DNA of 64,000 bases from Mycolicibacterium sp. J2 (GTDB lineage Bacteria > Actinomycetota > Actinomycetes > Mycobacteriales > Mycobacteriaceae): positions 147,883 through 211,882 of the forward strand of contig NZ_JAPFPY010000004.1 in the NCBI RefSeq assembly GCF_026240945.1. The letters run 5' to 3'. Position 1 is the stretch's first letter. Each line of letters starts with the position of its first letter. Both the position numbers and the translations under genes were made by a program. Positions 40,992 to 60,743 of this stretch are shown here, in pieces. The notes beneath the pieces were generated by a model that saw only the letters and a list, made by a program, of their open reading frames with translations, did not search any database and had not been told where the DNA came from.

Positions 40992-41001
40992 GGCGTCAGC
41001 C

Positions 41002-41007
41002 TAAGCT
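41002..41007 (+). promoter_or_regulatory. -10 element of the PucR-type regulator, leaderless start
   Basis: TAAGCT lies 6 bases before GTG 41014. This supports the second of two adjacent GTG codons (41011, 41014) as the true start and a leaderless transcript. Confidence 0.5.
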
Positions 41008-41013
41008 GCGGTG

Positions 41014-44709: not shown

Positions 44710-46076
44710 TCAGCCCGCAGCACGTCGTCGATGCGGTGCTGGCCGAGGCGGCCCAGCGCGGCAAGGCCGACGAGACCACCGTCATCGTCACCGACCGGTC
44801 AGACGCGTCGCTGCGGTGGGCCGGCAATTCCATGACCACCAACGGGGAATCCCGCGGACGCACCACCACGGTGATCTCGGTGGTGCGCCGCGGCAACGAC
44901 GCCCACGTGGGTTCGGTCACGTCGGCCGAGGTCGATCCGTCCGCCATCGCCGGATTGGTGGCGGCCTCCCAGGACGCAGCCCAGGCGGCACCGGCGGCCA
45001 GCGACGCGGCTCCGGCACTGCCCGCCGACGCCGGACCCGCCGACTGGGACGCCGACGTGCCGGTTACCGGGGCTGACGTGTTCGCCGATGTGGCAACGAG
45101 TTTGGGGCGTGGTTTTCGCGGGCCGGACACGTTGTACGGGTTCGCACGGCACGTGCTGGAGACCACGTTCGTCGCGACGTCGACCGGTCTGCGGCGCCGC
45201 TCCACCGAGCCGACCGGTTCGGTGGAGATCAATGCCAAGCGCGGTGGCGCTAGCTCGTGGGTCGGGGTGGGCACCGCCGACTACGTCGACGTCCCCACCG
45301 ATGCTCTGCTGGAAGAGCTTTCGCTTCGGCTGGGCTGGGCGGCCAAGACGGTCGAGCTGCCGGCCGGGCGGTACGAGACGCTGATGCCGCCGTCGACGGT
45401 GGCCGACATGCTGATCTATCTGGGCTGGAGCATGGATGGCCGCGGCGCGCAGGAGGGCCGCACCGCGCTGTCGGCGCCCGGCGGCACCCGGGTGGGGGAG
45501 AAGCTGACCGACCTGCCGCTGACGCTGTACTCCGACCCGCGCGCTGCCGGCCAGGAATGCCGGCCCTTCGTCGCGGTGCCGAGTTCCTCGGAGCGAGTCT
45601 CGGCCTTCGACAACGGGTTGGACATCGGCAGGGTGGACTGGCTGCGGGACGGCGTGATCAACGCGTTGTCCTACCCCCGTTCGGCCGCGGCCGAATTCGG
45701 TGTGCCGGTGACGGTTCCGGCGGAGAATCTGCTGATGACCGGCGGCACGGCGGAGCTGGCCGACATGATCGCCTCGACCGAGCGCGGCTTGCTGCTGACC
45801 ACGTTGTGGTACATCCGCACCGTCGACCCGGCGGTGCTGCTGCTGACCGGCCTCACCCGGGACGGGGTGTACCTCATCGAGGACGGTGAGGTGACGGCCG
45901 CCGTCAACAACTTCCGGTTCAACGAAAGCCCGCTGGACTTGCTGCGCAGGGCCACCGAGGCCGGGGTCAGCGAGCCCACCCTGCCACGCGAGTGGGGTGA
46001 CTGGGCCACCCGGGCCACCATGCCGTCGTTGCGGATACCGGATTTCCACATGTCCTCGGTGAGCCAGGCGCAATGA
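44706..46076 (+). CDS. tldE: TldE/PmbA-family protein
   Basis: A 456-residue PmbA/TldE partner of TldD that shares the fold but lacks the zinc motif; no HExxH is present. Family segments are GFARHVLETTFVATSTG, NAKRGGASSWVGVG, ALSAPGGTRVGEKL and ENLLMTGG. It is co-translated with tldD (ATGA overlap). The pair forms a heterodimeric protease acting on unstructured peptides; no ribosomal peptide gene is seen nearby, so a housekeeping role is likely. Confidence 0.9.
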   Translation: MISPQHVVDAVLAEAAQRGKADETTVIVTDRSDASLRWAGNSMTTNGESRGRTTTVISVVRRGNDAHVGSVTSAEVDPSAIAGLVAASQDAAQAAPAASDAAPALPADAGPADWDADVPVTGADVFADVATSLGRGFRGPDTLYGFARHVLETTFVATSTGLRRRSTEPTGSVEINAKRGGASSWVGVGTADYVDVPTDALLEELSLRLGWAAKTVELPAGRYETLMPPSTVADMLIYLGWSMDGRGAQEGRTALSAPGGTRVGEKLTDLPLTLYSDPRAAGQECRPFVAVPSSSERVSAFDNGLDIGRVDWLRDGVINALSYPRSAAAEFGVPVTVPAENLLMTGGTAELADMIASTERGLLLTTLWYIRTVDPAVLLLTGLTRDGVYLIEDGEVTAAVNNFRFNESPLDLLRRATEAGVSEPTLPREWGDWATRATMPSLRIPDFHMSSVSQAQ

Positions 46077-46116: not shown

Positions 46117-46848
46117 GTGGTAAGAACGTCGCGACCGGGCGCAGTGGCCGTCATCCTCGCGGCCGGTAGCGGCACCCGGATGGGCGCCGACCGCAACAAG
46201 GCCTATCTGCCCCTGGCGGGCCGCCGGATGCTGTCGTGGTCGTTGGGTTCGATCGCCGAGGTTCCCGAACTGGTGCGCACCATCCTGGTGATCCGGGCCG
46301 ACGATCGCGCACGCGCCACCGGCACCCTCGACCGTGAGGTGCCCGATCTGCCGGTGGAGATCATCGACGGCGGCTCGTCGCGGCACCAATCCGAGTACCG
46401 CGCTTTGCAATACCTGGCCGATGACATCGAATCGGGGGCGGTTGACATCGTCCTCATCCACGACGCTGCCCGCCCGTTGGCAGGGCCGGGCATGATGCGT
46501 TCGGCGATCACGGTGGCCCGTCAGTTCGGCGGCGCGGTGCCCGGGGTGGAGGTCCGCGATCTGGTGACCATGGACGAGGCCGGCAATCTCGGTGACCTGC
46601 GTCCCGAGGATCGCCATGTCCGGGTGCAGACACCGCAGGCGTTTCAGGCGCTGCCGCTGCTGCAGGCCTATCGCGATGCCGACGCCGAACAGTTCGAGGG
46701 CACCGACACCTCCTCGAGCGTCGAGAAGTTCTCCGACATCGAGGTGCGGTGTTTTCAGGGGGACCCGAGGAACATGAAGGTGACCTTCTCCCAGGATCTG
46801 TTTCTGGCCGAGCGGTTGCTCGCCGACGCCCATCACCGGCTCAAGTGA
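46117..46848 (+). CDS. IspD-like cytidylyltransferase (motifs intact)
   Basis: A 243-residue nucleotidyltransferase of the IspD/TarI group. It keeps the catalytic motifs: LAAGSGTRMG (CTP-binding loop), a lysine in NKAYLPL, IHDAARP, VQTPQAFQ, and MKVTFSQD near the C terminus, the last carrying the lysine that in IspD contacts the substrate phosphate. IspD makes CDP-methylerythritol from MEP and CTP; TarI-type relatives use ribitol phosphate. Mycobacteria already have an ispD (Rv3582c) elsewhere, so this may be a second MEP or polyol-phosphate enzyme. It lies convergent to a MEP-type operon. Confidence 0.8.
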   Translation: MVRTSRPGAVAVILAAGSGTRMGADRNKAYLPLAGRRMLSWSLGSIAEVPELVRTILVIRADDRARATGTLDREVPDLPVEIIDGGSSRHQSEYRALQYLADDIESGAVDIVLIHDAARPLAGPGMMRSAITVARQFGGAVPGVEVRDLVTMDEAGNLGDLRPEDRHVRVQTPQAFQALPLLQAYRDADAEQFEGTDTSSSVEKFSDIEVRCFQGDPRNMKVTFSQDLFLAERLLADAHHRLK

Positions 46849-46866: not shown

Positions 46867-47178
46867 ATGGAGGGACGTGAGTTAGCGCAATTACGGTGCA
46901 GCGAGTGCGGTTTGGAATCCGAGCACACTTTGCGGTATGCCGGGCGGTTGCTGGTGTCAACCGAGTGCGGCAACTGTGGTGTGCAGCGGCATCATCCCGA
47001 ACATGACCTGCGGCACGCCTATATCCATGATCTGGAGTTGCGTGTGTTGTCGAAACCGGGCCGGTGGGTCAACCGGCTGCGCCGGCATCCCGTGCAGACG
47101 TTGGTGGCGCTGCCCGGCGCGGTGCTGAGTCAACCGGTGAAGATCCTCCGCGAGATCGTCACGGTGCTGCGGGGCTGA
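46867..47178 (+). CDS. Small zinc-ribbon protein
   Basis: A 103-residue protein with two CxxC knuckles, C-S-E-C near residue 10 and C-G-N-C near 34, followed by histidines (QRHHPEHDLRH). The C-terminal half is hydrophobic/amphipathic with arginine (VNRLRRHPVQTLVALPGAVL). It is 18 bp downstream of the IspD-like gene with an AAAGG site, so the two may share a transcript. It ends 5 bp before the convergent degenerate IspD gene. Function unknown. Confidence 0.7.
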   Translation: MEGRELAQLRCSECGLESEHTLRYAGRLLVSTECGNCGVQRHHPEHDLRHAYIHDLELRVLSKPGRWVNRLRRHPVQTLVALPGAVLSQPVKILREIVTVLRG

Positions 47179-47183
47179 ACCGC

Positions 47184-47969
47184 TCAGCGTTGCTGGGCCA
47201 GCCGGCAACCGAGGATCGCGTCGGCCAGCTCGATATCGCGCGGGATGTCGAGGATGAACGCATCGGGATCTCCGTCGATGACGGCGGGCGTCACCCCGGC
47301 GCGGCGTGCCAGGGTGAGTTCGTCGAAGTCATCGGTCGCCTCGACGCCGGCGAGCATGGCGGTCAGGTGCTCGCGGTGAAATCCGCGGGGGTACTGCGCC
47401 GACCGCAGGCGCGAGCGGTCGACGGTTTCGGTCACCGCGCCGGCCGCGTCCACGGTTTTGACGCTGTCGACCATCGCCAGCGCGGGAACGACCACATCGT
47501 TGCCTGCGCGCAATCCGTCCAACACCCGGTCGGCGAGGTCGGTGGACGCCAGCGGCCGCCGAATATCGTGCACCAGAACGTATTCCACCGCGTCGTCAAC
47601 CTGCGCCACGGCCGCCGACAGGCATTCTTCCCGCGTCGCCGCACCGGGTACCGAGGTCACCTTGACCGTCACGTCATGGGCCGCCAGCACGGCCTTGACG
47701 TCGGCGTGTAGCGCCTCGGCCACGGCGATGACGGCGTCGGCGTCGGAACATCCGGCCACGATCCGGCTCTGCAGGCATTGCACCAGCGGCACGGTATCGC
47801 CGAAGCGGGTGAACAGCAGCTCCCGGTTGGTGGTCAGTGCGGCCGGGATCGGCACGACGAGCGCCCAGTCCGCTCGCTGGCGGCCGTGGCTGCGGGAAGC
47901 GGTGGTGCTGTGCCACCGGGGCAGCCGCGCATGCGGCGACCCGACGTTGCCGATCTTTTGATTCGCCAC
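47184..47969 (-). CDS. Degenerate IspD-like protein (catalytic motifs lost)
   Basis: A 261-residue protein that aligns along its length with actinobacterial IspD: YVLVHDIRRPLASTDLADRV corresponds to the VHDAAR region, and the VVPALAMVDSVKTVDAAG and LRSAQYPRGFHREHL parts are recognisable. Key positions have changed: the glycine-rich CTP loop (LAAGxGxR) is missing, the lysine after it is not apparent, HDAARP is HDIRRP, TPQGF is YPRGF, and the C-terminal FKIT lysine region is FILDIP. It probably lacks transferase activity but may still bind the ligand. It is the last gene of the PTS/DRL operon, starts at GTG with a strong GGAGGAGG site, and follows HPr by 63 bp. Confidence 0.75.
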   Translation of the reverse strand: MANQKIGNVGSPHARLPRWHSTTASRSHGRQRADWALVVPIPAALTTNRELLFTRFGDTVPLVQCLQSRIVAGCSDADAVIAVAEALHADVKAVLAAHDVTVKVTSVPGAATREECLSAAVAQVDDAVEYVLVHDIRRPLASTDLADRVLDGLRAGNDVVVPALAMVDSVKTVDAAGAVTETVDRSRLRSAQYPRGFHREHLTAMLAGVEATDDFDELTLARRAGVTPAVIDGDPDAFILDIPRDIELADAILGCRLAQQR

Positions 47970-48032
47970 TGCGCACCTCCTCCCGCTCGCTCCGGTTCCA
48001 GCATGCTAGCGGAACGCGCGGGGGGTGCCCGG

Positions 48033-48290
48033 TCAGGCGTCGAGGTCGCGCGCCACCAGGTCGGCGATCAGGTTGACCGTGTCGTCGTCATCGGCGGTGA
48101 CGGTGACCTCGGTGCCGGGGCCGGCGCCCAAGGTCATGATCATCAGGGCCGAGCCCGCATCGACCGGGTCACCCCCGTCACGCGACAGGGTCACCGTGCC
48201 TCCGGCCTTGGCGGCTGCCTCGGCGATGATGGCCGCGGGCCTGGCGTGCAATCCGACCGATGAGCCGACGGAGACGGTTTTGTTCGGCAT
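48033..48290 (-). CDS. ptsH: HPr-type phosphocarrier protein of the PTS
   Basis: An 85-residue HPr. The phosphorylated histidine is H15 in VGLHARPA, and a serine (S47, in DAGSALMIM) is close to the regulatory Ser46 position. It is inside the minus-strand PTS operon, between lpd and the degenerate IspD gene, so this operon carries its own HPr for the glucitol-type EII; no enzyme I is present in the window. ATG 48288-48290 gives the normal HPr N terminus and has an AAAGGGA site. Confidence 0.9.
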   Translation of the reverse strand: MPNKTVSVGSSVGLHARPAAIIAEAAAKAGGTVTLSRDGGDPVDAGSALMIMTLGAGPGTEVTVTADDDDTVNLIADLVARDLDA

Positions 48291-48313
48291 GAAATCCCTT
48301 TCAGATGTGGTGA

Positions 48314-49714
48314 TCAACTATGGCTGTGCAGCGGTTTGCCCGCCAACGCCAGGTGCGCTTCCCCGACGGCCTCCGACAGGGTCGGATGGGCATGGATGTG
48401 TTGGGCCACCTCGTCGGGGCGGGCATCCCAGTTGACGATCAGCTGCGCTTCGGAGATCAGTTCCCCGACGCGTTTGCCCACCATGTGCACACCGAGCACG
48501 GGGCCGCCCTTGGCGGACACGACTTTCACGATCCCCGTCGATCCCAGGATCCGGGCTTTACCGTTGCCGGCCAGGTCGTACACGGCGTCCTGGACCTCGT
48601 AGCCGCGCTCGGTGGCCACGGCGCTGGTCATCCCCACCGATGCCACCTCCGGATGGGAGTAGGTGACCCGCGGGACGCCCAGGTAGTCGATCGGCGCCGG
48701 GTCCAGGCCGGCCAGCGTTTCGGCCACCATGATGCCTTCGGCGAACCCGACGTGCGCCAGCTGCAGGGTGGGAATCACATCGCCGACGGCGAAGATGGTC
48801 GGCACCGACGTGCGGCAGCGCTCGTCGACCTTGAGGTACCCGCGGTCGGTTTCCAGTCCGACGCTGTCCAGGCCGATGCCGTCGGTGACCGGTGCCCGGC
48901 CGATCGCCACCAGCACCAGATCGGCCGCCAGGGTGGATCCGTCGTCGAGGGTCACGGTGACCCCCTCGGCTGAGGGTGTGGCGGCGGTGACCTTGGCTCC
49001 CAGCCGCAGCGAAATGCCTTGGCGGGCGAACGCTTTCTCCAGCGCCGCGCTGGCGGCCTGATCTTCCAGCGGAACCAGATGCGGTAGGGCTTCGACGATC
49101 GCCACCTGCGCGCCGAACGAGTGCCACACCGTGGCGAATTCGCACCCGATGGCGCCGCCGCCGAGCACGATGGCGCTGCGCGGGATCGCGTCGAGAGTCA
49201 GTGCTTCGTCGCTGGTGACGATCCGTTGCCCGTCGGCGGATATCCCGGGGATGTGGCGGGGCACCGATCCGGTCGCGACGACGATATGGGCACCGGACAC
49301 GGTGCGCTGTGTACCGTCGGGCAACGTGACCGCCACCGCGGTCGGTGAGACCAGTCGACCGGTGCCGGTAATCAGTTCGATGCCGCGACCGGCGACCAGC
49401 CCGGACAGGCCACGGAACAGGGCGTTGACGACACCGTCGCGGTAGGTGGCCACTGCGCCGGTGTCGATGTGGTCCAGGCTCGCCTGCACGCCGAAACAGG
49501 CTGATTCCCGGACGGTCTCGACGACGTCGGCGGTCTGCAGCAGCGCCTTGGTGGGGATGCAGCCGCGGTGCAGGCAGGTGCCGCCGAGCTTGTCCTTCTC
49601 GATGACCGCCACGCGCATGCCGAGTTCGGCGGCGCGCAACGCGGCGGCGTAGCCGCCGCTGCCCCCGCCGAGCACGATCAGATCGACGTCGAACGTGTCG
49701 TCCAGGCCGGACAT
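48314..49714 (-). CDS. lpd: Dihydrolipoyl dehydrogenase (E3)
   Basis: A 466-residue flavoprotein disulfide reductase. FAD motif LGGGSGGYAAALRA, redox pair C47/C52 in GGTCLHRGCIPTK, and the C-terminal HAHPTLSEA with the catalytic His. It reoxidises the lipoyl group of E2. It is one of four adjacent genes encoding a complete 2-oxo-acid or acyloin dehydrogenase complex (E1alpha, E1beta, E2, E3). ATG 49712-49714 was chosen because the N-terminal extension further upstream is not conserved. Confidence 0.95.
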   Translation of the reverse strand: MSGLDDTFDVDLIVLGGGSGGYAAALRAAELGMRVAVIEKDKLGGTCLHRGCIPTKALLQTADVVETVRESACFGVQASLDHIDTGAVATYRDGVVNALFRGLSGLVAGRGIELITGTGRLVSPTAVAVTLPDGTQRTVSGAHIVVATGSVPRHIPGISADGQRIVTSDEALTLDAIPRSAIVLGGGAIGCEFATVWHSFGAQVAIVEALPHLVPLEDQAASAALEKAFARQGISLRLGAKVTAATPSAEGVTVTLDDGSTLAADLVLVAIGRAPVTDGIGLDSVGLETDRGYLKVDERCRTSVPTIFAVGDVIPTLQLAHVGFAEGIMVAETLAGLDPAPIDYLGVPRVTYSHPEVASVGMTSAVATERGYEVQDAVYDLAGNGKARILGSTGIVKVVSAKGGPVLGVHMVGKRVGELISEAQLIVNWDARPDEVAQHIHAHPTLSEAVGEAHLALAGKPLHSHS

Positions 49715-49757
49715 GGTGGTTCTCCTTGTCAAGGTTCTGAGCCGGGCCGGCGAAGGG

Positions 49758-51056
49758 TCAGAGCAGCAGGCGGCGCACGTCGGCGAGCAGGTGGCCCAGA
49801 TGGCTGGTGAACCGCGCCGCCAGGGCACCGTCGATGATGCGGTGGTCGTAGGACAGGCTCAACGGCAGCATCAGCCGGGGAACGAATTGTGCGCCGTCCC
49901 ATACCGGCTCGGTCCGGCTCTTGGACACCCCGAGGATCGCGGCTTCGGGACTGTTCACGATCGGGGTGAACGCGGTGCCGCCGATACCGCCGAGGCTGGA
50001 CACCGTGAATGTGGCCCCGCCGATGTCGTCAGCGGCGAGCTTTCCGTCCCGAGCCCGCCCCGACACGTCGGCCAGCTCCCGGCTCAACTCGGTGATGCCC
50101 TTGCGGTCGACGTCCCTGATCACCGGCACCACCAGTCCGTGCGGGGTATCGACCGCCACGCCCAGGTGGTAATAGTGCTTGAGCACCAACGCATCCTGCG
50201 TTGCCGTCAGCGAGCTGTTCACCCTCGGATGGGCTTTGAGGGCGCACACCACGGCCTTGAGCAGGAATGCCAGCAGGGTGACCCGGTTGCCGTCTAGCTT
50301 CGCCGCCGCATCGAGGTCGCGCCGGTAGGCGTCGAGGTCGGTGATATCGGCGGTGTTGTGCTGCGTGACGTGCGGGATCGTCGTCCAGGACTGGGTGAGT
50401 GCGGCCGCCGAGACCCTGTTGATGCGGCTGAGGCGTTCCGTTGTCGTTTCACCGAACGCGTCCTGGGCGCCGCTGTCGGCCAGTGCTGGCGGTGCCGCCG
50501 GTACGACGGGTGCCGGGGTGGCCGGGATTCCGCCGCCGGTGGTGGTGCGCGCCGCCGTCTCGACATCGCCGACGGTGATCAGACCGTCAGGGCCGGAACC
50601 GGCCACCGTGTCGATGTCCACGTGTAATTCGCTGGCCCTGCGCCGGGCGAACGGTACGGCCGGGCGCGGTCCGCGACGCGACGGGGGAGTGGCCGCCGGG
50701 GCCGCGGTGCGTGCGCTCACCAGTTCTGGTTGCGGCTCGGGTGCCGGGCCTTTGTCCAGCCCGTTGTCCAGCCCGTTGTCCAACCCGTCGAACAGCCCGT
50801 CGAGCAGATCGTCGGCGTCACTGGTGATGTAGGCCAGTGGCTCGCCGACACCCAGCACCTGGTCGGGTTGGGCGATCAGTCGGGACAGTGTGCCCTCGAC
50901 CGGTGACTCGACCTCCATGTCGACCTTGTCGCTGGCCACCTCGCACAGGACGTCGCCGACCTTGACGGCTTCGCCGGGTTCCCGGCGCCACACCAGGAAG
51001 GTGCCCTCCGTCATCGTCATCGACATCTTGGGCATCACCAGCGGAACTTCGCGCAT
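49758..51056 (-). CDS. Dihydrolipoamide acyltransferase (E2), AcoC/PDH type
   Basis: A 432-residue E2. Lipoyl domain in residues 1-80 with lipoylated K44 in ASDKVDME, a linker with a short tandem repeat (DGL/DNGL units, about residues 86-102), a peripheral subunit-binding domain at about 128-165 (FARRRASELHVDIDTVAGSG), and a catalytic domain with SYDHRIIDG near the C terminus (the DHRxxDG active site). It transfers the acyl group to CoA. ATG 51054-51056 overlaps the E1beta stop (ATGA), so the two are co-translated. Confidence 0.93.
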   Translation of the reverse strand: MREVPLVMPKMSMTMTEGTFLVWRREPGEAVKVGDVLCEVASDKVDMEVESPVEGTLSRLIAQPDQVLGVGEPLAYITSDADDLLDGLFDGLDNGLDNGLDKGPAPEPQPELVSARTAAPAATPPSRRGPRPAVPFARRRASELHVDIDTVAGSGPDGLITVGDVETAARTTTGGGIPATPAPVVPAAPPALADSGAQDAFGETTTERLSRINRVSAAALTQSWTTIPHVTQHNTADITDLDAYRRDLDAAAKLDGNRVTLLAFLLKAVVCALKAHPRVNSSLTATQDALVLKHYYHLGVAVDTPHGLVVPVIRDVDRKGITELSRELADVSGRARDGKLAADDIGGATFTVSSLGGIGGTAFTPIVNSPEAAILGVSKSRTEPVWDGAQFVPRLMLPLSLSYDHRIIDGALAARFTSHLGHLLADVRRLLL

Positions 51057-52087
51057 CAGCTCGTCCTCACGAGATCTCGTGCCGCGGCGATGATGTCGTC
51101 GACCTGCGGCACGCTGGCCTTCTCCAGCTCGGGTGCGTAGGGGATCGGCGCGTCCAGACCACACAGCCGCTTGATGGGCGCCAGCAGGCTGTAGATGGCG
51201 TCGGAGCCGGCGATCCGGGCGGCGATCTCCCCGACGAAGCCGCCTGTCATCGGCGCCTCCTGCACCAGGAGCACCCGGCCGGTGGCCCGCACCGCATCCA
51301 GCACGGTGTCCTCGTCGAACGGCACCAGGGTGCGTGGATCCACGACGGTGATCCCGATGCCCTCGGCGGCCAGCGTCCGGGCGGCCTGCACCGACTTGCC
51401 GACCATCACGCCGGTGGCCACGATCGTCAGGTCGTCGCCCTCGTGCCGAATCGCGGCCTTGCCCAACGGGACCCGCTCGTTTCCGGCGGGCACCGGGCCG
51501 CTGGTGCGATACAGCAGCTTGTGTTCGAGCACGATGACGGGATTCGGATCGTCGATCGCGGCCAGCAGCAGACCCTTGGCGTCGGCGGCAGTGGCGGGCA
51601 GCGCCACCTTCAGTCCGGGGACGTGGGCGAACCACGCTTCCAGGGACTGCGAATGTTGTGCTGCCGCACCGGTTCCGGATCCGGATGGGGCGCGCAGCAC
51701 CATGGGCACACTGGCCGCGCCGCCGAGCATGAAGTGGATCTTGGCTGCCTGGTTGACGATCTGGTCCATCGCCTGGTTGGTGAAGTCGGAGAACTGGATC
51801 TCCACCACCGGACGCATGCCGCACATGGCTGCGCCCACCGCCGCACCGACGATGCCGAGCTCGGAGATCGGGGTGTCGCGGACGCGTTCGGCCCCGAATT
51901 TCTCCAGCAGCCCCTTGGTGACACCGAAGGCCCCGCCGTAGATGCCGATGTCCTCACCCAGGATGAACACCCGTTCATCCTCGGTCATGGCGGTGCTCAG
52001 GGCGTCCCGGACGGCGTCGGAGTAGGACATCTCGGTGACACCCGCGCCGCCGGGGGCGTCGATCTCGATGGTGGTGGACGTGCTCAC
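51056..52087 (-). CDS. E1 beta subunit, acetoin/pyruvate dehydrogenase type
   Basis: A 343-residue transketolase-like beta subunit. Features: [37 protein letters not shown] and [20 protein letters not shown], the last carrying the catalytic Glu. With the alpha subunit it forms a thiamine-diphosphate E1 that can act on pyruvate or cleave acyloins such as acetoin. Similarity to AcoB is what I would expect; alternative substrates are discussed in the findings. GTG 52085-52087 overlaps the E1alpha stop. Confidence 0.92.
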
Positions 52088-53094
52088 GCTGACTCCTGCA
52101 CTGGTGCGTATACGCCGGAGAGCAACTCGTCGGCGCGGGATGGGGCGGCCTCGTTACCGGCTTTGATCGCCGCTCGTATGGCATCGCGGGCGTGGGTGCG
52201 CACGGCTTCGATATCGTCCTGGGACAGGGTGCCGTGTTCGAGCGCGGTGGCCTCGAACCGGCCGATCGGGTCCTTGGCCCGCCACGTGTCGATCTCCTCG
52301 CGGGTGCGGTAAAGGTTCTGATCGCTCTTTGAATGTCCCTTGTAGCGGTAGGTGACGGCCTCGACCAGCGTCGGCCCGCGGCCGGCCCGGGCGCGGGCGA
52401 CGGCCTCGCTGACGGCGTCGAAGACTTCTTGGACGTCGTTGCCGTCCACCGTGACCCCGGGCATCCCGTAGGCCGCTGCCCGGTCACTGACCCGCGGCAC
52501 GGCCATCGACCGCGCGCTCGACATGGACATGCCGTAACCGTTGTTCTCGCAGATGAACACCGCGGGTAGCGCCCACACCGCAGCCAGATTGAGGCCCTCG
52601 TGGAAGGCGCCCTCGTTGGTGGCGCCGTCGCCGAAGAAGCTGACGGCGACGTTGGTGGTGTTGCGCAGCTTCTGGGCCAGCGCTGCGCCGGCGGCGATGG
52701 GGATGCCGCCGCCGACGATGCCGTTGGCGCCCAGGTTGCCGGTGTCGACATCGGCGATGTGCATGGACCCGCCCCGGCCCCGGCAGTAGCCGGTTTCCTT
52801 GGCCAGCAGCTCGGCCATCATCCGGTCGAGCTTGGCGCCCTTGGCGATGCAGTGCCCGTGCCCGCGGTGGGTCGAGGTGATCAGGTCGTGGCGGGTCAGC
52901 GCCAAGCAGGCGCCGGTGGCGACGGCTTCCTGCCCGATCGACAGGTGCATGGTGCCGTGCATCAGGCCGCGGGCGAACAGGTCGTCGACGGCCTCTTCGA
53001 ACCGGCGGATCTCCCACATGGTGGTCAGCACCCGCCGCGCCAAGGCGGCGTCGTCGGCCAGTCGCGTTGCGGCGGTGCCTGATTCGGTGGTCAC
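52084..53094 (-). CDS. E1 alpha subunit, acetoin/pyruvate dehydrogenase type
   Basis: A 336-residue alpha subunit with the thiamine-diphosphate motif [13 protein letters not shown] ... CENN, and [29 protein letters not shown] and [10 protein letters not shown] as in AcoA/PdhA. I chose GTG 53092-53094, which has an AAAGG site 7 bases upstream and gives the usual family length; longer versions would run into the DRL-like gene's 3' end. It lies 31 bp after the DRL-like oxidoreductase. Confidence 0.9.
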
Positions 53095-53125
53095 GAGGTT
53101 GCCTTTCACATCGAGGGTCGAGGTG

Positions 53126-54448
53126 TCAGGCGACATGCGCGCCACCGGCGATCGCGATGGGCAGTGGAACACCGGCCAGCAGCTTGTCCTGCAACTGGCG
53201 CAGCGCGGCGATGGTGGTGCCGGGGCGCAGTTCGACGTCGTCGGCGGTGATCACGGCGTCGGCGGGGACGTCGCGCAGCAGCGTTGCTCCTTCGAGCAGG
53301 CCGAGCGGCACCAGGCCCTGATCCTTTGTTGCCTGCGCTGATTCGATGACGCCGTACACCGTGGTGCCGCCGATGCCGTCGATCGTGTCACCGGCTTTGA
53401 GGTCGCGTTTGGCGCCGGCGACAACTTCGGCGTTCCAATGCGACGGCGCCAGGCTGGGCTTGCGGTCCAGGATGGCCTCGGCGATGGTCAGGGGTGCTTC
53501 GATGCTGGCCAGGTGGTACGGCCGGTACAGGGTGAAGTACGGACCCGGTCCCATCTTGAGGTAGGTCATCTCGTCGGCGACGATGTCGTCCGGGGTCCGC
53601 ACGATGGCGAACACGCCCGGGGCGACGTCTCCGGTGCAGTAGTCGACGACGCCCGCCCGGTCCAGCACGCCGCCGTCGGCGGTGGTGCGGAACGTGGTGG
53701 ACAGCTCGTCGATGCTCGAACGCGGCCCGTACATTCCGCGGGTGCTGACCTCCAGGCCGGTGGCGTTGGCCAGCGCCGCCATCTCGATCATGGCCTTGGA
53801 GCCGTCGACGAAGCTGCACAGCATCTTCGGGTTCATGTGCTTGCTGTTGGCTTCGGCGGTCAATTCCTGGGGCGTGGCATGGGGATTCAACGGGTTGTTC
53901 TTGCCCTTGCCCGCGCACACCACCTCGAAAGCCAGGTCGCGGGCGAAGTCGACCAGCCGCTTCGCCTCGGCGGGTTCGTCACCGCGGCAGACACTGTAGA
54001 TGCGCCCGGTTTGCTTGGCGATCGAGGACAGCAGGTAGCCGATGGTGACATCGCATTCGACGTTGAGCAGCGCGATGTCCTTGCCGGCGAGCAGACCGCT
54101 GAAGGCGACCTGCGCCCCGACCTCGGGGACACCGGACGCGTCGACCACGATGTCGACGGGCAGTGCGGTCAGCAGCGCGGCGTCCTCGACGGCGACGGTG
54201 CCGCCGGCTTCGATGGCCTGCGCGAGTTGTGTTACCTCGCTTCCGGTTTGCGGGTCGGCGCCGGCTTTGCGGAGCGCGTCGGCGGCACGGCCGGGGACGA
54301 CATCGGCTACGGCGGCGATCTGCATACCGGCGATACGGCCCACCTGGGCGATGAAACCCAGACCCATCTGGCCGGCGCCGACCAGTCCGACGCGGATGGG
54401 GCGGCCCAGCTCGTCCTGGCGGGCGATGAGACGTTCGGTGTAACTCAC
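53126..54448 (-). CDS. DRL-family oxidoreductase with SAF domain (DXR-like)
   Basis: A 440-residue NAD(P)-dependent oxidoreductase: Rossmann motif GAGQMG at residues 24-29, a homoserine-dehydrogenase-like middle, and a C-terminal SAF domain (about 355-440). It shows hallmarks that I recall for the DRL (DXR-like) family, defined by the Brucella enzyme that converts 1-deoxyxylulose 5-phosphate to MEP: CAGKGKNNPLNPHATP near residue 178, DGSKAMIEMAALANATGL, MYGPRSSIDELS and GPYFTLYRPYHLASIE. Its place in a PTS operon suggests use of the same chemistry in catabolism, perhaps in reverse. GTG start with an AAAGGAG site. The reaction is inferred, not shown. Confidence 0.8.
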   Translation of the reverse strand: MSYTERLIARQDELGRPIRVGLVGAGQMGLGFIAQVGRIAGMQIAAVADVVPGRAADALRKAGADPQTGSEVTQLAQAIEAGGTVAVEDAALLTALPVDIVVDASGVPEVGAQVAFSGLLAGKDIALLNVECDVTIGYLLSSIAKQTGRIYSVCRGDEPAEAKRLVDFARDLAFEVVCAGKGKNNPLNPHATPQELTAEANSKHMNPKMLCSFVDGSKAMIEMAALANATGLEVSTRGMYGPRSSIDELSTTFRTTADGGVLDRAGVVDYCTGDVAPGVFAIVRTPDDIVADEMTYLKMGPGPYFTLYRPYHLASIEAPLTIAEAILDRKPSLAPSHWNAEVVAGAKRDLKAGDTIDGIGGTTVYGVIESAQATKDQGLVPLGLLEGATLLRDVPADAVITADDVELRPGTTIAALRQLQDKLLAGVPLPIAIAGGAHVA

Positions 54449-54471
54449 GGGAACTCCTTTGAGGGGGTGGT

Positions 54472-54867
54472 CTAGGCGGTGGGTGTTCGAGTCACCACAC
54501 GGAATGTGCTGCCGGGCAGCAATCTCGGCGGGGTGATGTTCGGCAGGCAGACGTCGCCACCCAAGGGTGGTGAGGTTTCACCGTTGAATTTCAGGTCGAT
54601 GTGCCCGAGGTTGACCAGGTTCTGGTTGGCGACATGACCGACGGCGAGGATGGGGAACTCGTGGTCGTCGAGGAGGAGCACGTCCCCGACGGTGAGCCCG
54701 CCGGTGGCGACCTCGGGTCGGTGCAGGACGCTCATATCGTGCAGTTCGACCGGAGCGTTCTCGCCGAAGAAGATCAGCATGCCCTGCTCGGCGAAATCCG
54801 GTACCAGGGAACCGATCTGGGTCACGGTGGTGGAGTAGCGCACGACCTGCGCCCGCACATCGGTCAC
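54472..54867 (-). CDS. PTS glucitol/sorbitol-family IIA component
   Basis: A 131-residue IIA of the Gut family; the sequence has the typical YSTTVTQIGSLVPDFAEQGMLIFFGENAPVELHD arrangement in outline, with H43 (VELHD) and H49 (SVLH) as candidate phosphorylation sites, and GDVLLLDDHEFPILAVGHVANQNL after. It passes phosphate from HPr to the IIB domain. It overlaps the IIB gene by 4 bp. Confidence 0.88.
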   Translation of the reverse strand: MTDVRAQVVRYSTTVTQIGSLVPDFAEQGMLIFFGENAPVELHDMSVLHRPEVATGGLTVGDVLLLDDHEFPILAVGHVANQNLVNLGHIDLKFNGETSPPLGGDVCLPNITPPRLLPGSTFRVVTRTPTA

Positions 54868-55241
54868 TGGTCGATCGCTTCGATCTCGCCGGTGCCGACG
54901 TGCGAGACGAAGTTGGTTTCCTTGATGAAGTTGGCCAGGGGTCCCGACGGGGTGGCGGCGTTGATATCGATGGTCAGGACGTTCTTCATCGGGTAGACCC
55001 CGATGCGGGCGGTGCCGCCACAGTCGATCACGGCAACGGCCACCTTGTCGAACGGGGCCGAGCTGCGGAACCCGTCGAAAGCCTCACCGCCGGTGAGTTC
55101 GGCGATGCGTTGGGCCACCGGGTGGATGCCGCCGCCGGTCACCGAGTAGATCAGCGGACGGTCGTCGGTGGGCTTGATGACCAGCGGGCCTCCCCATCCG
55201 TTGCGGCCTTTGGTGACCTTTACTGCTTTGTAATCGGTCAT
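54864..55241 (-). CDS. PTS glucitol/sorbitol-family IIB component (N-terminal part of SrlE)
   Basis: A 125-residue IIB: G-R-N-G-W-G-G-P-L near the start and the phosphocysteine C74 in VIDCGGTARIGVYP. In E. coli this domain is the N-terminal half of SrlE and is fused to a membrane domain; here the two halves are separate genes, 27 bp apart. ATG at 55239-55241. Confidence 0.88.
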   Translation of the reverse strand: MTDYKAVKVTKGRNGWGGPLVIKPTDDRPLIYSVTGGGIHPVAQRIAELTGGEAFDGFRSSAPFDKVAVAVIDCGGTARIGVYPMKNVLTIDINAATPSGPLANFIKETNFVSHVGTGEIEAIDQ

Positions 55242-55268
55242 AAGTCGTTTCCTTTCTGGCGGTGGGGG

Positions 55269-55877
55269 TTACGAGTACAGGCCGAAGCTGGCGAAGTACG
55301 CGATGACGACGGCCGCGGGGCCGGTGATCATGCGGGAGAACAGCACGGCAGGTACCCCGATCTCGACGGTCTCGGGTTCGGCCTCGCCCAGCGAGAGGCC
55401 GACCGGGATGAAGTCGCAGCCCACCTGGCCGTCGATGGCGAACAGAGCGGGCAGCGCATACTGCGGCGCGATGTTGCCGAGGCCGATCTGAACACCGAGC
55501 AGGGTGCCGATCACCTGGGCGATGACCGCGCCGGGGCCCAGTACCGGGGACAGGAACGGCAGACAGACGATGACCGAGATCAGCAGCAGGCCGGGAAGTC
55601 CCGACGCCAGCGGTGCCAGGTGTTTGGCGATGAAGTCACCGATCCCGGTGGCCTGGATAAAGCCGATGAGGAACGCAATGAAGGCGATGAACGGCAACAC
55701 GTTCTTGATGACGGTGTCGATGGTCTCGCGGCCGGACTGGTAGAACACGTTGACGACGTTGCCGACTGCCCGGCCGAGCCCGGTGAGTCCGCCGGCGATC
55801 TTGTCGAAGGCTCCCCGCGTCTTCGCGGAGGCCGTGGCTTTGCCCTGATCGGTGGCGTCTGCGGTGATTTCGCTCAT
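55269..55877 (-). CDS. PTS glucitol/sorbitol-family IIC (SrlE C-terminal) membrane protein
   Basis: A 202-residue membrane protein equal to the C-terminal, membrane half of Srl[47 protein letters not shown] and [19 protein letters not shown] are family motifs. It forms the sugar channel together with the SrlA-like protein. It lies 12 bp after the SrlA-like gene. Confidence 0.88.
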
Positions 55878-55889
55878 GGTCGTTGGTCC

Positions 55890-56525
55890 TTATGCCGGGG
55901 AAGGGGCGGCAGTAGTGGGGGAGCCGTGCTGGCGTTCCTTACGTCGGGTCAAGATGCCGACCATGAGGTCGGTCACGATGCCGCGCAGCAGGATGACGAT
56001 CAGGCCGACGTAGAAGTAGCGGACCGCGAGATCGGCCACCGGCAGGTTCAGTTTGGTGATGCCCGCGGCGATCCCGGCATAGACGAAGTACTCACCGGCG
56101 TTGGCGTGCGGGAAGATCGCGGTGATCGGATGGCAGAAGCTCACGGCCGCGTCGTAGAACGCCGCTTTCCGGCGCTCCGGCAGGAACCGTCCCATGGTGT
56201 AGGCCATCGGGTTGGTCAGGAAGAACATAGACAGGACGGGCAGCACCAGATAGCGCAAGGGAAGGTACTGGATGCCTGGCCGCCCGGCGATGACACCGAC
56301 TTTCTCGATCCGTTCGGTACCGATCAGTCGGATGAGGGCGTTGACGGCGGTGAGCAGGACGATCAGCAGCGGGATGATGCCGGTGACCAGCCCGACGAAC
56401 GTCTCGGCGCCCGCTTTGAAGATGCCGATGAATGCTTCGGCCCAACCCGCCAGCACTCCGTTGAAACCACTGGGTGGCGCCGGTGCTTCCTCTGCAAGCA
56501 GAGTCAGCCCAAGGGCAATGGACAT
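55890..56525 (-). CDS. PTS glucitol/sorbitol-family IIC (SrlA-like) membrane protein
   Basis: A 211-residue membrane protein of the SrlA family: AEAFIGIFKAGAETFVGLVTGIIPLLIVLLTAVNALIRLIG in outline (residues about 28-68) and PMAYTMGRFLPERRKAAFYDAAVSFCHPITAIFPH further on. It is the second membrane partner of the EII complex. The C-terminal tail is proline/alanine-rich. Gene order srlA, srlE halves, srlB follows the E. coli gut operon. Confidence 0.88.
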   Translation of the reverse strand: MSIALGLTLLAEEAPAPPSGFNGVLAGWAEAFIGIFKAGAETFVGLVTGIIPLLIVLLTAVNALIRLIGTERIEKVGVIAGRPGIQYLPLRYLVLPVLSMFFLTNPMAYTMGRFLPERRKAAFYDAAVSFCHPITAIFPHANAGEYFVYAGIAAGITKLNLPVADLAVRYFYVGLIVILLRGIVTDLMVGILTRRKERQHGSPTTAAPSPA

Positions 56526-56576
56526 GTCGTTCCTGTCTGAAAGTGATGGGTAGGGGGATAAGAGGAGTCGCCGGGT

Positions 56577-56969
56577 TCAGGCCGCGGCAGCTCTCCGCTT
56601 TCGGGCGTGGTGCTCGACGTACAGCGTTGCCGCGTGCGTCGCAGCCTGGGCGGTGCGGCGATCGAGCCCGCCGACGGTGCTTTCGGCCAGTTCGCCGACC
56701 GGCATCCCGATCAACTCGGGGCATGCCTTGGCGCGGGAGAACACCGTGTAGCCGTGCAGGATTCGCGAGTCGGTCACCACACCGTCGCGCAGCGCCAGTG
56801 CGGCGTAGGCGCGCAGCCCGCGCCGCTTGCCGCGACCGATGAACACGACGCCGTTGCTGCGCAGGGCGGCGATGTCGGTAAGGAATCGCTTGGACTGCCA
56901 CCAGCTCATCAGCATCTGGGTGGCCCAGAGGCCGGCGAAGATCAGGGTGAACGTCAGCATTGAGGTCAC
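56577..56969 (-). CDS. GutM-like operon activator
   Basis: A 130-residue protein resembling GutM (glucitol operon activator): an N-terminal hydrophobic segment (SMLTFTLIFAGLWATQMLMSWWQSKRF) and a charged remainder with GVVFIGRGKRRGLRAYAALALRDGVV. In E. coli GutM helps activate the glucitol operon. It is co-translated with the SorC-type gene (overlap 56966-56969). Confidence 0.78.
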   Translation of the reverse strand: MTSMLTFTLIFAGLWATQMLMSWWQSKRFLTDIAALRSNGVVFIGRGKRRGLRAYAALALRDGVVTDSRILHGYTVFSRAKACPELIGMPVGELAESTVGGLDRRTAQAATHAATLYVEHHARKRRAAAA

Positions 56970-57949
56970 ATTCCTTCCGTACCGAGTCGAGGGGTGGCGG
57001 CGTCGAGGGCCAGCGCCGCGCGGGCGGCGGCTTCGTCGCAGATCAAGACGTCGAGGTGACCACCGCGGAGCGCGCCGACCAAGCCGGGCGCCTTCACCCG
57101 CCCGGACGTCACGCCGACCACCATCGGCACCCGGCGTAAGTCGTCGAGGTCGACGGCGATGACGTGGTCGTGCACCGCGCGCGAGGGCACCGGCACCCCG
57201 TTGATGTCGTAGTAGCGGGCGCAGATATCGCCCGCGGGGGACATGGTGTCCAATTCGGCGCGATCTTCCGGGCTGAGCGCCATGGCGTCGATGATCGCCG
57301 CCGAGGAGCTGTCGCCGTAGGTGCCGACGCCGACGAAGGCGATATCGGCGGACTTTGCGGCGTCCAGGGCACCGGACACGGAGCGTTCACTGAGAAAGGC
57401 CTCGACCGCGGTGAGGTTGGCGACCAGTGCCGGCGCGTGCAGGTAGCGATACCGGGCGCCGAGCCGAGTCGCCAACTCCCGCACCAGTTCTTGGCCGGTG
57501 ACTCCGGCGTCGACCGCCGAAAGGCCGCCGACGAGTTGGACCACCTCCACGTCGTACTGCCGACTCGCGGTGATCGACCACACCATCGCCTGTAGGGCGG
57601 TGCCCCACGACAGGGCCAGGCGTTGGCCATCCTGAATGTTGTCCAGGAGCCATTGCGAGGACAGCTTCGAAACCGTTTGGGCGGGTGTGGAACCGGGGGT
57701 GTGCGCGGCCACCTGGCAGTCGTGCAGACCGAAGCGCTGTTTGAGTTCGGCTTCGAGGGTGTCGCGGCGCTCGGTGCCGTCGATGATGCGGATCTCGACG
57801 ATGCCCTGTTCCCGTGCGGCGGCCAGCATCCGGGAGACGTTGGACCGGCTGGTGCCGAGCACCGAGGCGATCTCCTGCTGCGAGGAACCGTCCACGAAGT
57901 ACATCCGAGCCGCTTTCACGAGGTCCTCGCGGACCCGCTCTGCAACCAT
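56966..57949 (-). CDS. SorC/DeoR-family sugar-phosphate-responsive regulator
   Basis: A 327-residue regulator: a short N-terminal HTH (GSSQQEIASVLGTSRSNVSRMLAAAREQG in outline, residues 20-50) and a SorC-type effector domain with LSWGTALQAMVWSI, VGVGTYGDSSSAAI and the Arg-rich PMVVGVTSGRVKAPGLVGALRGG. SorC proteins typically bind a phosphorylated polyol. I use ATG 57947-57949; a GTG at 57955 would add two residues. It heads the operon, so autogenous control by a phosphorylated substrate such as MEP is likely. Confidence 0.88.
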   Translation of the reverse strand: MVAERVREDLVKAARMYFVDGSSQQEIASVLGTSRSNVSRMLAAAREQGIVEIRIIDGTERRDTLEAELKQRFGLHDCQVAAHTPGSTPAQTVSKLSSQWLLDNIQDGQRLALSWGTALQAMVWSITASRQYDVEVVQLVGGLSAVDAGVTGQELVRELATRLGARYRYLHAPALVANLTAVEAFLSERSVSGALDAAKSADIAFVGVGTYGDSSSAAIIDAMALSPEDRAELDTMSPAGDICARYYDINGVPVPSRAVHDHVIAVDLDDLRRVPMVVGVTSGRVKAPGLVGALRGGHLDVLICDEAAARAALALDAATPRLGTEGM

Positions 57950-57950
57950 C

Positions 57951-58004
57951 GTCACATCCGTTCCATCACCGTCACATCTGACAGAGATGGTTCTATCATG
58001 TGAC
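57951..58004. promoter_or_regulatory. Repeated GTCACAT heptamers at the SorC promoter
   Basis: The heptamer GTCACAT occurs at 57951-57957 and 57971-57977, 20 bases apart in the same orientation, and its inverse ATGTGAC at 57998-58004. A -10-like TAGAAC lies between the outer two on the minus strand. Evenly spaced heptamers around the start of the operon are good candidates for SorC binding sites. Confidence 0.55.
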
Positions 58005-59852: not shown

Positions 59853-60659
59853 TCAGGGTGTGCCCGTTGCGGTCGTCGCTACGCCGCCGTCGACCGGGAT
59901 GATGGCGCCCGTGAGGTAGGACCCGGCCCGGCTGGCGAGAAAGACGGCGGTCCCTGCCATGTCGTCAGCACGGCCGAGCCGGCGCAGCGGTGCGGCCGCC
60001 GCGATCGTGTCGCCGATGGCATCGAGGGTGGACGACATCATCTGCGATGGGAACACTCCCGGCGCGACCGCGTTCACCGTGATGTGCTGCGGTCCCAGTT
60101 CTCTGGCCAGCACCCTGGTGAGTTGGTGCAGCGCCGCCTTGCTGCTGGCGTACGAGTAGTTGGGTGCTTGGGCGACGTGGATGGCGGCGATACTGCCAAT
60201 GTTGATGATCCGCGCGGGATCATCGGCGGTGCCGGCTTCACGAAGCGCGGGCAGCAGTGCCTGAACGAGCCAGAACGGCGACTTGAGGTTGAGTCCGAGC
60301 ACCGTGTCCCACGCCTCGTCCGGAAAGGTCGCCAGTGGCTCGCGCCACATCACTCCGGCATTGTTGACGAGGATGTGCAGTCGCTTCGAGCTGGACGTCA
60401 CGAGGTCGGCAAGGCGCAGACATTCGTCATGACGGGACAGGTCCGCGGGGATCGCGCGAACGTCGCCGAATCCCGACAAATGTTGCTGTGCTTGCGTACA
60501 CGCGTGCGTATCGCGTGAACTGATCACAACGCGGGCGCCCGCCTGCGCCAGTCCACGGGCGATCATCAGACCGATGCCCCTGGTGCCGCCCGTGACCAGT
60601 GCGTACTTCCCGCCCAGACCGAAAAGTTCGGTTTGGTCGGTGAATTCGTTGTCTCTCAT
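59853..60659 (-). CDS. Short-chain dehydrogenase/reductase, 3-oxoacyl reductase-like
   Basis: A 268-residue classical SDR: TGGTRGIG cofactor motif, NNAGVM, and the active-site S and YASSK. The C terminus ends GAIIPVDGGVATTATGTP, typical of the RhlG/FabG-like group, so reduction of a 3-oxoacyl or related ketone with NADP(H) is likely. ATG 60657-60659 was chosen; longer frames add non-conserved sequence. Confidence 0.87.
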   Translation of the reverse strand: MRDNEFTDQTELFGLGGKYALVTGGTRGIGLMIARGLAQAGARVVISSRDTHACTQAQQHLSGFGDVRAIPADLSRHDECLRLADLVTSSSKRLHILVNNAGVMWREPLATFPDEAWDTVLGLNLKSPFWLVQALLPALREAGTADDPARIINIGSIAAIHVAQAPNYSYASSKAALHQLTRVLARELGPQHITVNAVAPGVFPSQMMSSTLDAIGDTIAAAAPLRRLGRADDMAGTAVFLASRAGSYLTGAIIPVDGGVATTATGTP

Positions 60660-60743
60660 CGTGACCAGGCTGACAGGCGGGTCGGCTATCGGGGAGACCC
60701 TGACGGTACAGGTACTGCCAGAACCACCCTCGATCACCCGCTG

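What the first reader, a model, noticed from the sequence alone, without database searches (positions are those of the whole stretch)
47184..57949. Candidate catabolic operon for 2-C-methyl-D-erythritol (PTS, DRL, acyloin dehydrogenase, IspD-like)
Thirteen minus-strand genes join a SorC regulator, GutM, a glucitol-type PTS (four EII genes and an HPr), an oxidoreductase with DRL-family signatures, a complete E1alpha/E1beta/E2/E3 complex, and an IspD-like protein. Established knowledge: DRL enzymes interconvert 1-deoxyxylulose 5-phosphate (DXP) and methylerythritol 4-phosphate (MEP); the glucitol PTS phosphorylates a polyol during uptake; AcoAB-type complexes cleave methyl-ketone acyloins to acetyl-CoA plus an aldehyde. 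DXP is itself a methyl-ketone acyloin. Chained together: methylerythritol is imported and phosphorylated to MEP, MEP is oxidised and rearranged to DXP, and DXP is split to acetyl-CoA and glyceraldehyde 3-phosphate. The IspD-like member independently points to MEP. I know of no described pathway of this kind.
Basis: partly seen in the sequence, partly recalled or inferred. Interest (0 to 1): 0.93.

Follow-up and report, generated by a model that had tools for sequence, protein, structure and literature searches.

The report
Methylerythritol-eating operon
This mycobacterial operon joins a sugar-alcohol importer, a DXR-II-family enzyme and a lipoate-dependent cleaving complex, and is predicted to feed on methylerythritol by likely running the first steps of isoprenoid synthesis backwards; the same core recurs in at least five phyla, including bacteria that appear to lack that synthesis pathway.

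Summary
The operon is real and intact: 12 tightly spaced minus-strand genes (SorC regulator to HPr), plus a 13th co-directional IspD-like gene. The core recurs: of the 80 best DRL loci, 55 carry the glucitol PTS, 44 the E1 pair, 42 the PTS plus E1alpha. In the rhizobial plasmids opened, DRL-E1-E2 is paired with the PTS or with an ABC transporter plus kinase. DRL-linked E1s form one clade across phyla, apart from acetoin-type E1s, with GHS[K/R]SD where those have GHFEGD. In 18 of 50 genomes with IspD and IspH, DRL is the only DXR candidate, which points to DXP/MEP chemistry; 9 of 50 are mevalonate-only by the markers searched, yet all 9 keep DRL beside the PTS and 6 beside E1, which argues for catabolism. 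Two corrections: the IspD-like gene is the degenerate partner of a plus-strand ispD, a pair that stands in for canonical ispD in 25 of 98 genomes of the genus, so it is no evidence for the substrate; and this DRL lacks a threonine reported invariant in DXR-II.

The parts
56966..57955 (-). SorC-family regulator (sugar-phosphate-binding type), first gene
   Evidence: PF04198 2e-57; best NCBIfam model is DeoR, 195 bits, far below its cut-off of 420; SorC homologue in 54 of 80 DRL loci
56577..56969 (-). GutM
   Evidence: PF06923 2.2e-16
55890..56525 (-). glucitol-type PTS EIIC
   Evidence: PF03608 2.5e-71; NF049923 over cut-off
55269..55877 (-). glucitol-type PTS EIIBC C-terminal part
   Evidence: PF07663 7.9e-48
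54864..55241 (-). glucitol-type PTS EIIB N-terminal part
   Evidence: PF03612 1.2e-50; matches solved glucitol EIIB 9x2m
54472..54867 (-). glucitol-type PTS EIIA
   Evidence: PF03829 5.9e-32
53126..54448 (-). DRL / DXR-II-family oxidoreductase, predicted MEP to DXP
   Evidence: PF21135 4.5e-65 + SAF; solved Brucella enzyme 3upl E 4.7e-103; inside the clade that holds it; equal to it at 21 of 25 sites named in PMC3847144, K181, K183, R309, Y311 kept, Thr229 position is A219
52084..53172 (-). E1 alpha (start uncertain)
   Evidence: PF00676 1.2e-90; DRL-linked E1 clade, motif GHSKSD with K282
51056..52087 (-). E1 beta
   Evidence: PF02779, PF02780; same clade
49758..51056 (-). E2 acyltransferase with lipoyl domain (Met start at 51056)
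   Evidence: PF00198, PF00364, PF02817; start
48314..49714 (-). E3 dihydrolipoyl dehydrogenase (likely start 49714)
   Evidence: TIGR01350 474 bits over cut-off 409; start
48033..48317 (-). HPr phosphocarrier
   Evidence: PF00381 1.1e-19; TIGR01003 over cut-off; GLHARPA site in translation
47184..47969 (-). degenerate IspD-like protein; co-directional but assigned to the ispD pair, not to the catabolic core
   Evidence: PF01128 5.1e-28 over profile 44-219 only; nucleotide loop and lysines missing
46117..46848 (+). intact IspD, convergent partner; best IspD hit of this genome
   Evidence: PF01128 147 bits; catalytic residues kept
46867..47178 (+). small four-cysteine protein (called 'bh' here), recurrent beside DRL and E1 loci
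   Evidence: no Pfam or NCBIfam match; homologue in 21 of 80 DRL loci

Best explanation
This operon likely lets the cell live on 2-C-methyl-D-erythritol: the glucitol-type PTS would import it as methylerythritol 4-phosphate (MEP), the DRL enzyme is predicted to oxidise and rearrange MEP to 1-deoxyxylulose 5-phosphate (DXP), and the E1-E2-E3 complex would split DXP into acetyl-CoA and glyceraldehyde 3-phosphate. Shown here: the genes, their order, the recurrence of the core, the single E1 clade, and the distribution of MEP and mevalonate marker genes. Inferred: each reaction in this organism, the direction of the DRL step (uphill alone, pulled by the irreversible NAD- and CoA-dependent cleavage), the SorC effector (probably MEP or DXP), and the identity of the polyol. 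The degenerate IspD-like gene is not part of the mechanism.
For: (1) Recurrence: of the 80 best DRL loci, 55 have at least two glucitol PTS genes, 44 E1alpha+E1beta, 41 also E2, 42 the PTS plus E1alpha. (2) Modular import: DRL-E1alpha-E1beta-E2 lies next to an ABC transporter plus a sugar kinase in Rhizobium N324, S. meliloti Rm41 and A. tumefaciens, beside the glucitol PTS in Rhizobium B230/85 and Nitratireductor, and in one plasmid stretch with an FGGY kinase and an MFS transporter in Priestia; PTS and kinase both deliver a phosphate ester. (3) DRL-linked E1s form one clade, 44 rows plus 3 rows of 2 loci without DRL in the stretch, support 100/99, separate from six acetoin-type E1s, 100/99. 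E1alpha position 282 is Lys in 46 of 48 rows and Arg in the other two (L052, L062), against Glu in 6 of 6 acetoin-type rows. A positive charge in that loop suits a phosphorylated substrate (inference). (4) Substrate identity of the family: 18 of 50 DRL genomes have IspD and IspH, no DXR-I and no HMG-CoA reductase, 15 of the 18 with a single DRL; in 6 of the 18 the DRL locus carries PTS and E1. (5) Direction: 9 of 50 have HMG-CoA reductase and no DXR-I, IspH or IspD; all 9 have DRL beside the PTS and 6 beside E1. (6) The window's DRL sits inside the clade with the Brucella enzyme. (7) A cited title states that the sorbitol PTS transports methylerythritol into Salmonella (seen in reference lists only). 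(8) PDH, a relative, forms 1-deoxyxylulose from pyruvate and glyceraldehyde, and aceE mutants make DXP (passages).
Against: The residue equivalent to Thr229, reported absolutely conserved in DXR-II and a fosmidomycin anchor, is Ala here, with Glu174 to Arg, His250 to Tyr and Val351 to Asn; the same Ala is in L006, L016, L017, L018 and L036, and the four of these that were checked (all but L018) have DXR-I, so no Ala-type DRL is known here to be the sole DXR. 13 of 80 loci have the PTS without E1 and 21 have neither; some carry other downstream enzymes: class II aldolase, TIM-family and UPF0047 proteins, fructose-6-phosphate aldolase with transketolase, a tagatose-bisphosphate aldolase nearby. 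In Salmonella the phosphorylation of imported ME is attributed to an ATP-dependent kinase (passage). 6 of the 9 mevalonate-only genomes have more than one DRL-domain gene. Several genomes are incomplete metagenome bins, and only three MEP genes and one mevalonate gene were sought. No enzyme was assayed, and no report of growth on methylerythritol was found.
Confidence: 0.7

Rival explanations
1. Same chemistry, different polyol: the operon takes up another 2-C-methyl or 1-deoxy polyol (2-methylthreitol, or a C6 homologue giving erythrose 4-phosphate), DRL having shifted specificity through Ala219/Tyr240.
For: Ala at the Thr229 position and Tyr at His250; galactitol-type EIIC and zinc alcohol dehydrogenase genes beside E1 (L170) or DRL (L171) in other loci show that related pathways probably exist.
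Against: 74 of 80 fetched DRLs keep Thr229, and L049, L056 and L059, all with E1 in the locus, match Brucella at all 25 sites, so the pathway as a family most simply handles MEP/DXP.
Confidence: 0.17
2. Methylerythritol salvage into isoprenoids: the PTS makes MEP for IspD, and DRL only balances pools.
For: IspD homologue in 36 of 80 DRL loci; DRL clusters lie between carD and cysS in several actinobacteria.
Against: E1-E2-E3 has no place in salvage; 9 mevalonate-only genomes keep DRL plus PTS with no IspD found.
Confidence: 0.05
3. Ordinary sorbitol or acetoin operon with a mis-annotated dehydrogenase.
For: The PTS genes belong to glucitol families; E1 lies near acetoin-type E1s in the tree. 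A short-chain dehydrogenase gene of unknown substrate lies on the same strand about 1.9 kb upstream of SorC (59853-60737), behind two other genes.
Against: None of the 13 genes matches a polyol-phosphate dehydrogenase family other than DRL; DRL is in the DXR-II clade; E1 lacks the GHFEGD loop.
Confidence: 0.05
4. Alternative entry into isoprenoid synthesis: E1 makes DXP (DXS-like), DRL makes MEP, IspD continues.
For: aceE mutants make DXP; DRL, PTS, E1alpha and an IspD homologue occur in one locus in 24 of 80.
Against: E2, E3 and a PTS are not needed for that; mevalonate-only genomes keep the set; this genome has DXR-I.
Confidence: 0.03

Closest known systems
DXR-II (DRL), e.g. Brucella enzyme 3upl/3upy
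   Same: PF21135 + SAF, same clade, substrate lysines K191/K193 and R320, Y322 kept
   Different: Sits in a PTS/E1 operon with a SorC regulator; Thr229 is Ala; the genome has DXR-I as well
Acetoin dehydrogenase complex AcoABCL
   Same: Two-subunit E1, lipoyl E2 and E3; expected methyl-ketone acyloin cleavage to acetyl-CoA plus an aldehyde
   Different: Separate supported clade; GHS[K/R]SD instead of GHFEGD; linked to DRL, while the context-labelled acetoin references sit with butanediol dehydrogenase or an annotated acetoin E2
Glucitol/sorbitol PTS operon (srl/gut)
   Same: EIIC, EIIB, EIIA and GutM
   Different: No sorbitol-6-phosphate dehydrogenase among the 13 genes; EIIBC split in two genes; own HPr; SorC regulator
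Salmonella methylerythritol uptake by the sorbitol PTS (Testa, Cornish, Poulter 2004; title seen in reference lists only)
   Same: Same transporter family, same proposed solute
   Different: In the passages seen, ME restores isoprenoid synthesis of a dxr mutant and an ATP-dependent kinase is credited with phosphorylation (PMC3994034); no catabolism described there
Brucella-type erythritol catabolism (recalled, not tested)
   Same: C4 polyol phosphate route
   Different: Reductoisomerase plus E1 complex here instead of a dehydrogenase plus isomerases

Membership tests
DXR-II (DRL) | DRL catalytic domain plus SAF domain | tested here: met
   PF21135 219 bits, PF08666 37 bits
DXR-II (DRL) | Groups with a characterised DXR-II rather than with more distant homologues | tested here: met
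   in the 79-row clade with Brucella 3upl (SH-aLRT 99), apart from three mycobacterial homologues at 31-36%; that those three are DLO members was not tested
DXR-II (DRL) | Lys191, Lys193, Arg320, Tyr322 | tested here: met
DXR-II (DRL) | Thr229, reported absolutely conserved in DXR-II (PMC3847144) | tested here: not met
   Ala219 in the window; 74 of the 80 fetched DRLs have Thr at that column, 5 Ala, 1 Ser
DXR-II (DRL) | Interconverts DXP and MEP | not testable with these tools
   no assay; indirect support
Acetoin dehydrogenase E1 (AcoAB) | Falls inside the acetoin-type E1 clade | tested here: not met
   separate clades, each 100/99; the acetoin label rests on gene context for L136 and L137 and on tree position for the other four
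Acetoin dehydrogenase E1 (AcoAB) | GHFEGD loop | tested here: not met
   window GHSKSD; 6 of 6 acetoin-type rows GHFEGD
Acetoin dehydrogenase E1 (AcoAB) | Acyloin cleavage to acetyl-CoA | not testable with these tools
   -
Glucitol-type PTS | EIIC, EIIB and EIIA domains of the Gut family | tested here: met
IspD (gene 47184-47969) | Nucleotide-binding loop and catalytic lysines | tested here: not met
   loop gapped, the two Lys positions are Leu and Ile; TIGR00453 101 bits, cut-off 181
IspD (gene 46117-46848) | Nucleotide-binding loop and catalytic lysines | tested here: met
   but TIGR00453 165 bits, under its cut-off of 181

The most novel reading that the evidence does not exclude
A widespread, undescribed catabolic pathway for 2-C-methylerythritol, in which bacteria run the opening of the MEP isoprenoid pathway in reverse: MEP is oxidised to DXP by DXR-II and DXP is cleaved to acetyl-CoA and glyceraldehyde 3-phosphate by a dedicated, phosphate-recognising E1-E2-E3 'DXP dehydrogenase' complex. 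On this view DXR-II arose as a catabolic enzyme and was recruited repeatedly to isoprenoid synthesis, which would explain its patchy distribution and its presence in mevalonate-only bacteria.
Probability: 0.6. Interest if true: 0.93.

Novelty: new variant of a known kind. Interest (0 to 1): 0.85.

Why it matters
In the papers seen, DXR-II is read as an alternative isoprenoid enzyme. A published survey found it, with activity shown experimentally, in organisms classed as without the rest of the MEP pathway (Chloroflexus aurantiacus, Finegoldia magna; PMC3847144 section 7), and a 2026 review says no defining pattern of distribution has emerged apart from over-representation among certain pathogens (passage). 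A catabolic origin would explain both and can be tested with one growth experiment and two enzyme assays. It would add a pathway for a C5 polyol that, from general knowledge, is made by plants and is akin to the 2-methyltetrols of isoprene aerosol, and would give a new lipoate-dependent enzyme activity with a sequence signature for annotation.

Tried and rejected
Rejected: IspD-like gene as evidence for the substrate in this genome. Rejected: E1 as plain acetoin or pyruvate E1. Considered and left open: branched polyols with a hydroxymethyl group (apiitol-like) for the DRL loci that carry transketolase or FSA instead of E1, an inference only.

Led nowhere: paper searches for catabolism of methylerythritol or 2-methyltetrols (listings only, plus passages of the papers opened; one search listed 20 of 973 papers and 20 of 46). 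No described pathway was seen, but most subscription papers are not held, and the Salmonella transport paper and one other paper looked up by DOI (meant to be the original DRL report) were not held. GC content of the window is even, 0.65-0.71 in 4-kb steps, so it does not mark a recent insertion. A TldE homologue was not found in the 80 DRL loci, nor TldD or TldE in the ten ispD-pair regions fetched. No structure prediction was run.

Rows left out: the E1 trees hold only loci with both E1 genes, so L025 and L045 (E1alpha alone) are absent. further left out ten loci (seven copies of operon genes, the window's own among them, and three odd frames) and L056; one search included the window and left out seventeen loci (copies, near-duplicates, three odd frames) and L056. 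The DRL tree left out nine near-duplicates. Genome-level counts used the genomes of 50 of the 80 loci.
Full report
What is there. The window lies in a 5.96-Mb genome whose DRL protein is 97% identical to one named Mycolicibacterium cosmeticum. Twelve minus-strand genes from 57955 to 48033 form one run with gaps of at most 51 bp: SorC regulator, GutM, EIIC, EIIBC C-part, EIIB N-part, EIIA, DRL, E1alpha, E1beta, E2, E3, HPr. A thirteenth gene, IspD-like, follows after 63 bp. The HPr histidine motif (GLHARPA), the E3 cysteine pair (CLHRGC) and the E2 lipoyl-domain lysine (SDKVDME) are visible in the translations (their roles are recalled).

Recurrence. Of these 80, 55 carry at least two glucitol PTS genes, 46 E1alpha, 44 E1alpha and E1beta, 41 also E2, 42 the PTS and E1alpha, 13 the PTS without E1, 4 E1 without the PTS, 21 neither (maps). 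By record title, carriers of DRL plus E1 include Actinomycetota, Bacillota, Chloroflexota, Spirochaetota, Methylomirabilota and Aerophobetes, and one Bacteroidetes bin (L045) whose DRL is nearly the same as that of L047; plasmids add Pseudomonadota. Of ten annotated plasmid DRL regions that I opened, seven have E1 genes in the same stretch and three do not. Transport is exchangeable: ABC transporter plus sugar kinase or glucitol PTS with the same DRL-E1-E2 core; two of the ABC-type ones also carry lipA.

The DRL enzyme. It has the DRL catalytic and SAF domains and falls with the solved Brucella DXR-II, far from three mycobacterial homologues at 31-36% identity. At 25 sites named in PMC3847144 (sections 5-7 and 9 read), DRLs L049, L056 and L059, each with E1 in its locus, equal Brucella throughout; the window's DRL is equal at 21. 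It keeps K191, K193, R320, Y322 and G121 but has Ala for Thr229, Tyr for His250, Asn for Val351 and Arg for Glu174. Thr229 is described as absolutely conserved in DXR-II and replaced in the DLO families, four representatives of which failed to complement a DXR mutant, so activity of this particular protein is the weakest link. Of the 80 relatives 74 have Thr, 5 Ala and 1 Ser there.

What the family acts on. I searched the genomes of 50 of the 80 loci for DXR-I, IspD, IspH, DRL and HMG-CoA reductase. 18 of 50 have DXR-I. Another 18 have IspD (100 bits or more) and IspH, no DXR-I and no HMG-CoA reductase, so a DRL is the only DXR candidate seen; 15 of those have a single DRL, 9 have the PTS at the DRL locus and 6 have PTS and E1. 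9 are mevalonate-only by these markers (HMG-CoA reductase; no DXR-I, IspH or IspD); all 9 have the PTS at the DRL locus and 6 have E1. Five are unclear, most of them draft bins. The first group points to DXP/MEP as the substrate pair, the second to a use other than isoprenoid synthesis. Against it: 6 of the 9 mevalonate-only genomes have more than one DRL-domain gene, and many of the genomes are metagenome bins.

The E1 complex. In a tree of concatenated E1alpha and E1beta, 44 DRL-linked rows and three other rows form one clade (100/99), separate from six acetoin-type E1s (100/99) and from PDH/BCKDH-like ones (a mixture-model tree without the window, agrees with 46 linked rows and two others). 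The three other rows are two loci: a Bacillus xiamenensis operon with SorC, galactitol-type EIIC, zinc alcohol dehydrogenase and a small four-cysteine gene (two rows of one gene), and a Clostridioides plasmid locus with SorC and an MFS transporter. The Bacillus genome has its DRL and glucitol PTS elsewhere (L080). Twelve E1alpha positions are at least 93% conserved in the clade and absent from the acetoin-type rows; the clearest is S281-K282-S283 (GHSKSD) against F-E-G (GHFEGD). Position 282 is Lys in 46 of 48 and Arg in L052 and L062, Glu in 6 of 6 acetoin-type rows, Thr, Ser or Met in eight PDH/BCKDH-like ones, and Met in human E1alpha. That this loop borders the active site is recalled.

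Mechanism (inferred). PEP + methylerythritol gives MEP + pyruvate (PTS); MEP + NADP+ gives DXP + NADPH (DRL); DXP + CoA + NAD+ gives acetyl-CoA + glyceraldehyde 3-phosphate + NADH (E1-E2-E3). The DRL direction is unfavourable alone and would be pulled by the last step. [quoted passage not shown] and PMC3424233 (passages), where PDH makes 1-deoxyxylulose from pyruvate and glyceraldehyde and PDH E1 mutants give DXP.

The IspD gene. The genome has three IspD-domain hits: 46117-46848 plus (147 bits), 47184-47969 minus (99 bits) and a GlmU-like gene. Between carD and ispF, where related genomes have ispD, the gap is 14 bp. Of 98 genomes of the genus, 71 have a canonical IspD of 236 bits or more, one has it split in two frames beside ispF, one (87% complete) shows neither, and 25, this one included, have a convergent pair: a full-length IspD hit and a weaker one. 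In the ten other pair regions read, the weaker gene lacks the loop and lysines as here. In all 23 other pair genomes with an ispF locus the carD-ispF gap is 9-51 bp without ispD; in five genomes with ispD there, one of them split, it is 679-726 bp. An orthologous DRL was found in 1 of 198 genomes of the genus; three others have hits at 33-36%. So the pair is a replacement for canonical ispD, independent of this operon, and the IspD argument of the finding falls. Across other actinobacteria a DRL-IspD linkage does recur (36 of 80 loci have an IspD homologue), in several with carD and cysS on either side.

Verdict. No described pathway was seen in ten searches of the held library (capped listings), which does not hold most subscription journals. 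All reactions remain untested.

Noticed in passing
46117-46848 (+) and 47184-47969 (-); L120-L129: A convergent pair of an intact and a degenerate IspD stands in for canonical ispD in 25 of 98 genomes of the genus; carD and ispF are only 9-51 bp apart in each of the 24 that could be checked. Small-genome actinobacteria (L030, L033, L035, L037, L050) also have a degenerate IspD next to an intact one. It suggests a heteromeric IspD with an inactive subunit.
   Followed up: partly
46867-47178; L170 15245-15571; L171 8948-9283: A roughly 100-residue four-cysteine protein with no family match recurs beside DRL or E1 genes in actinobacteria and Bacillota (21 of 80 loci; further ones by eye).
   Followed up: partly
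L040, L043, L046; L133; L201; L171: DRL loci without E1 carry other downstream enzymes: class II aldolase plus TIM-family plus UPF0047 proteins; fructose-6-phosphate aldolase plus transketolase; a tagatose-bisphosphate aldolase nearby; an FSA-family protein with galactitol-type EIIC. Related branched polyols may have their own routes.
   Followed up: partly
L018, L022-L024, L026, L027, L030, L033, L037, L044: The DRL cluster or its parts lie between carD and cysS, the housekeeping ispD-ispF region, in several actinobacterial lineages (family check of one carD and one cysS).
   Followed up: partly
L029, L030, L032, L033, L039, L063: In small actinobacterial genomes (1.0-1.5 Mb held) without a detected DXR-I, DRL is directly followed by ispD, with no PTS or E1 found in the locus: a plain biosynthetic pair.
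   Followed up: partly
43192-46076 (+): TldD/TldE-like metallopeptidase genes directly upstream of the intact ispD; TldE not found in the 80 DRL loci, neither found in ten other ispD-pair regions.
   Followed up: partly
38001-42522: Sugar ABC transporter genes (minus strand) with a regulator gene (plus strand) nearby; judged from translations only.
   Followed up: no
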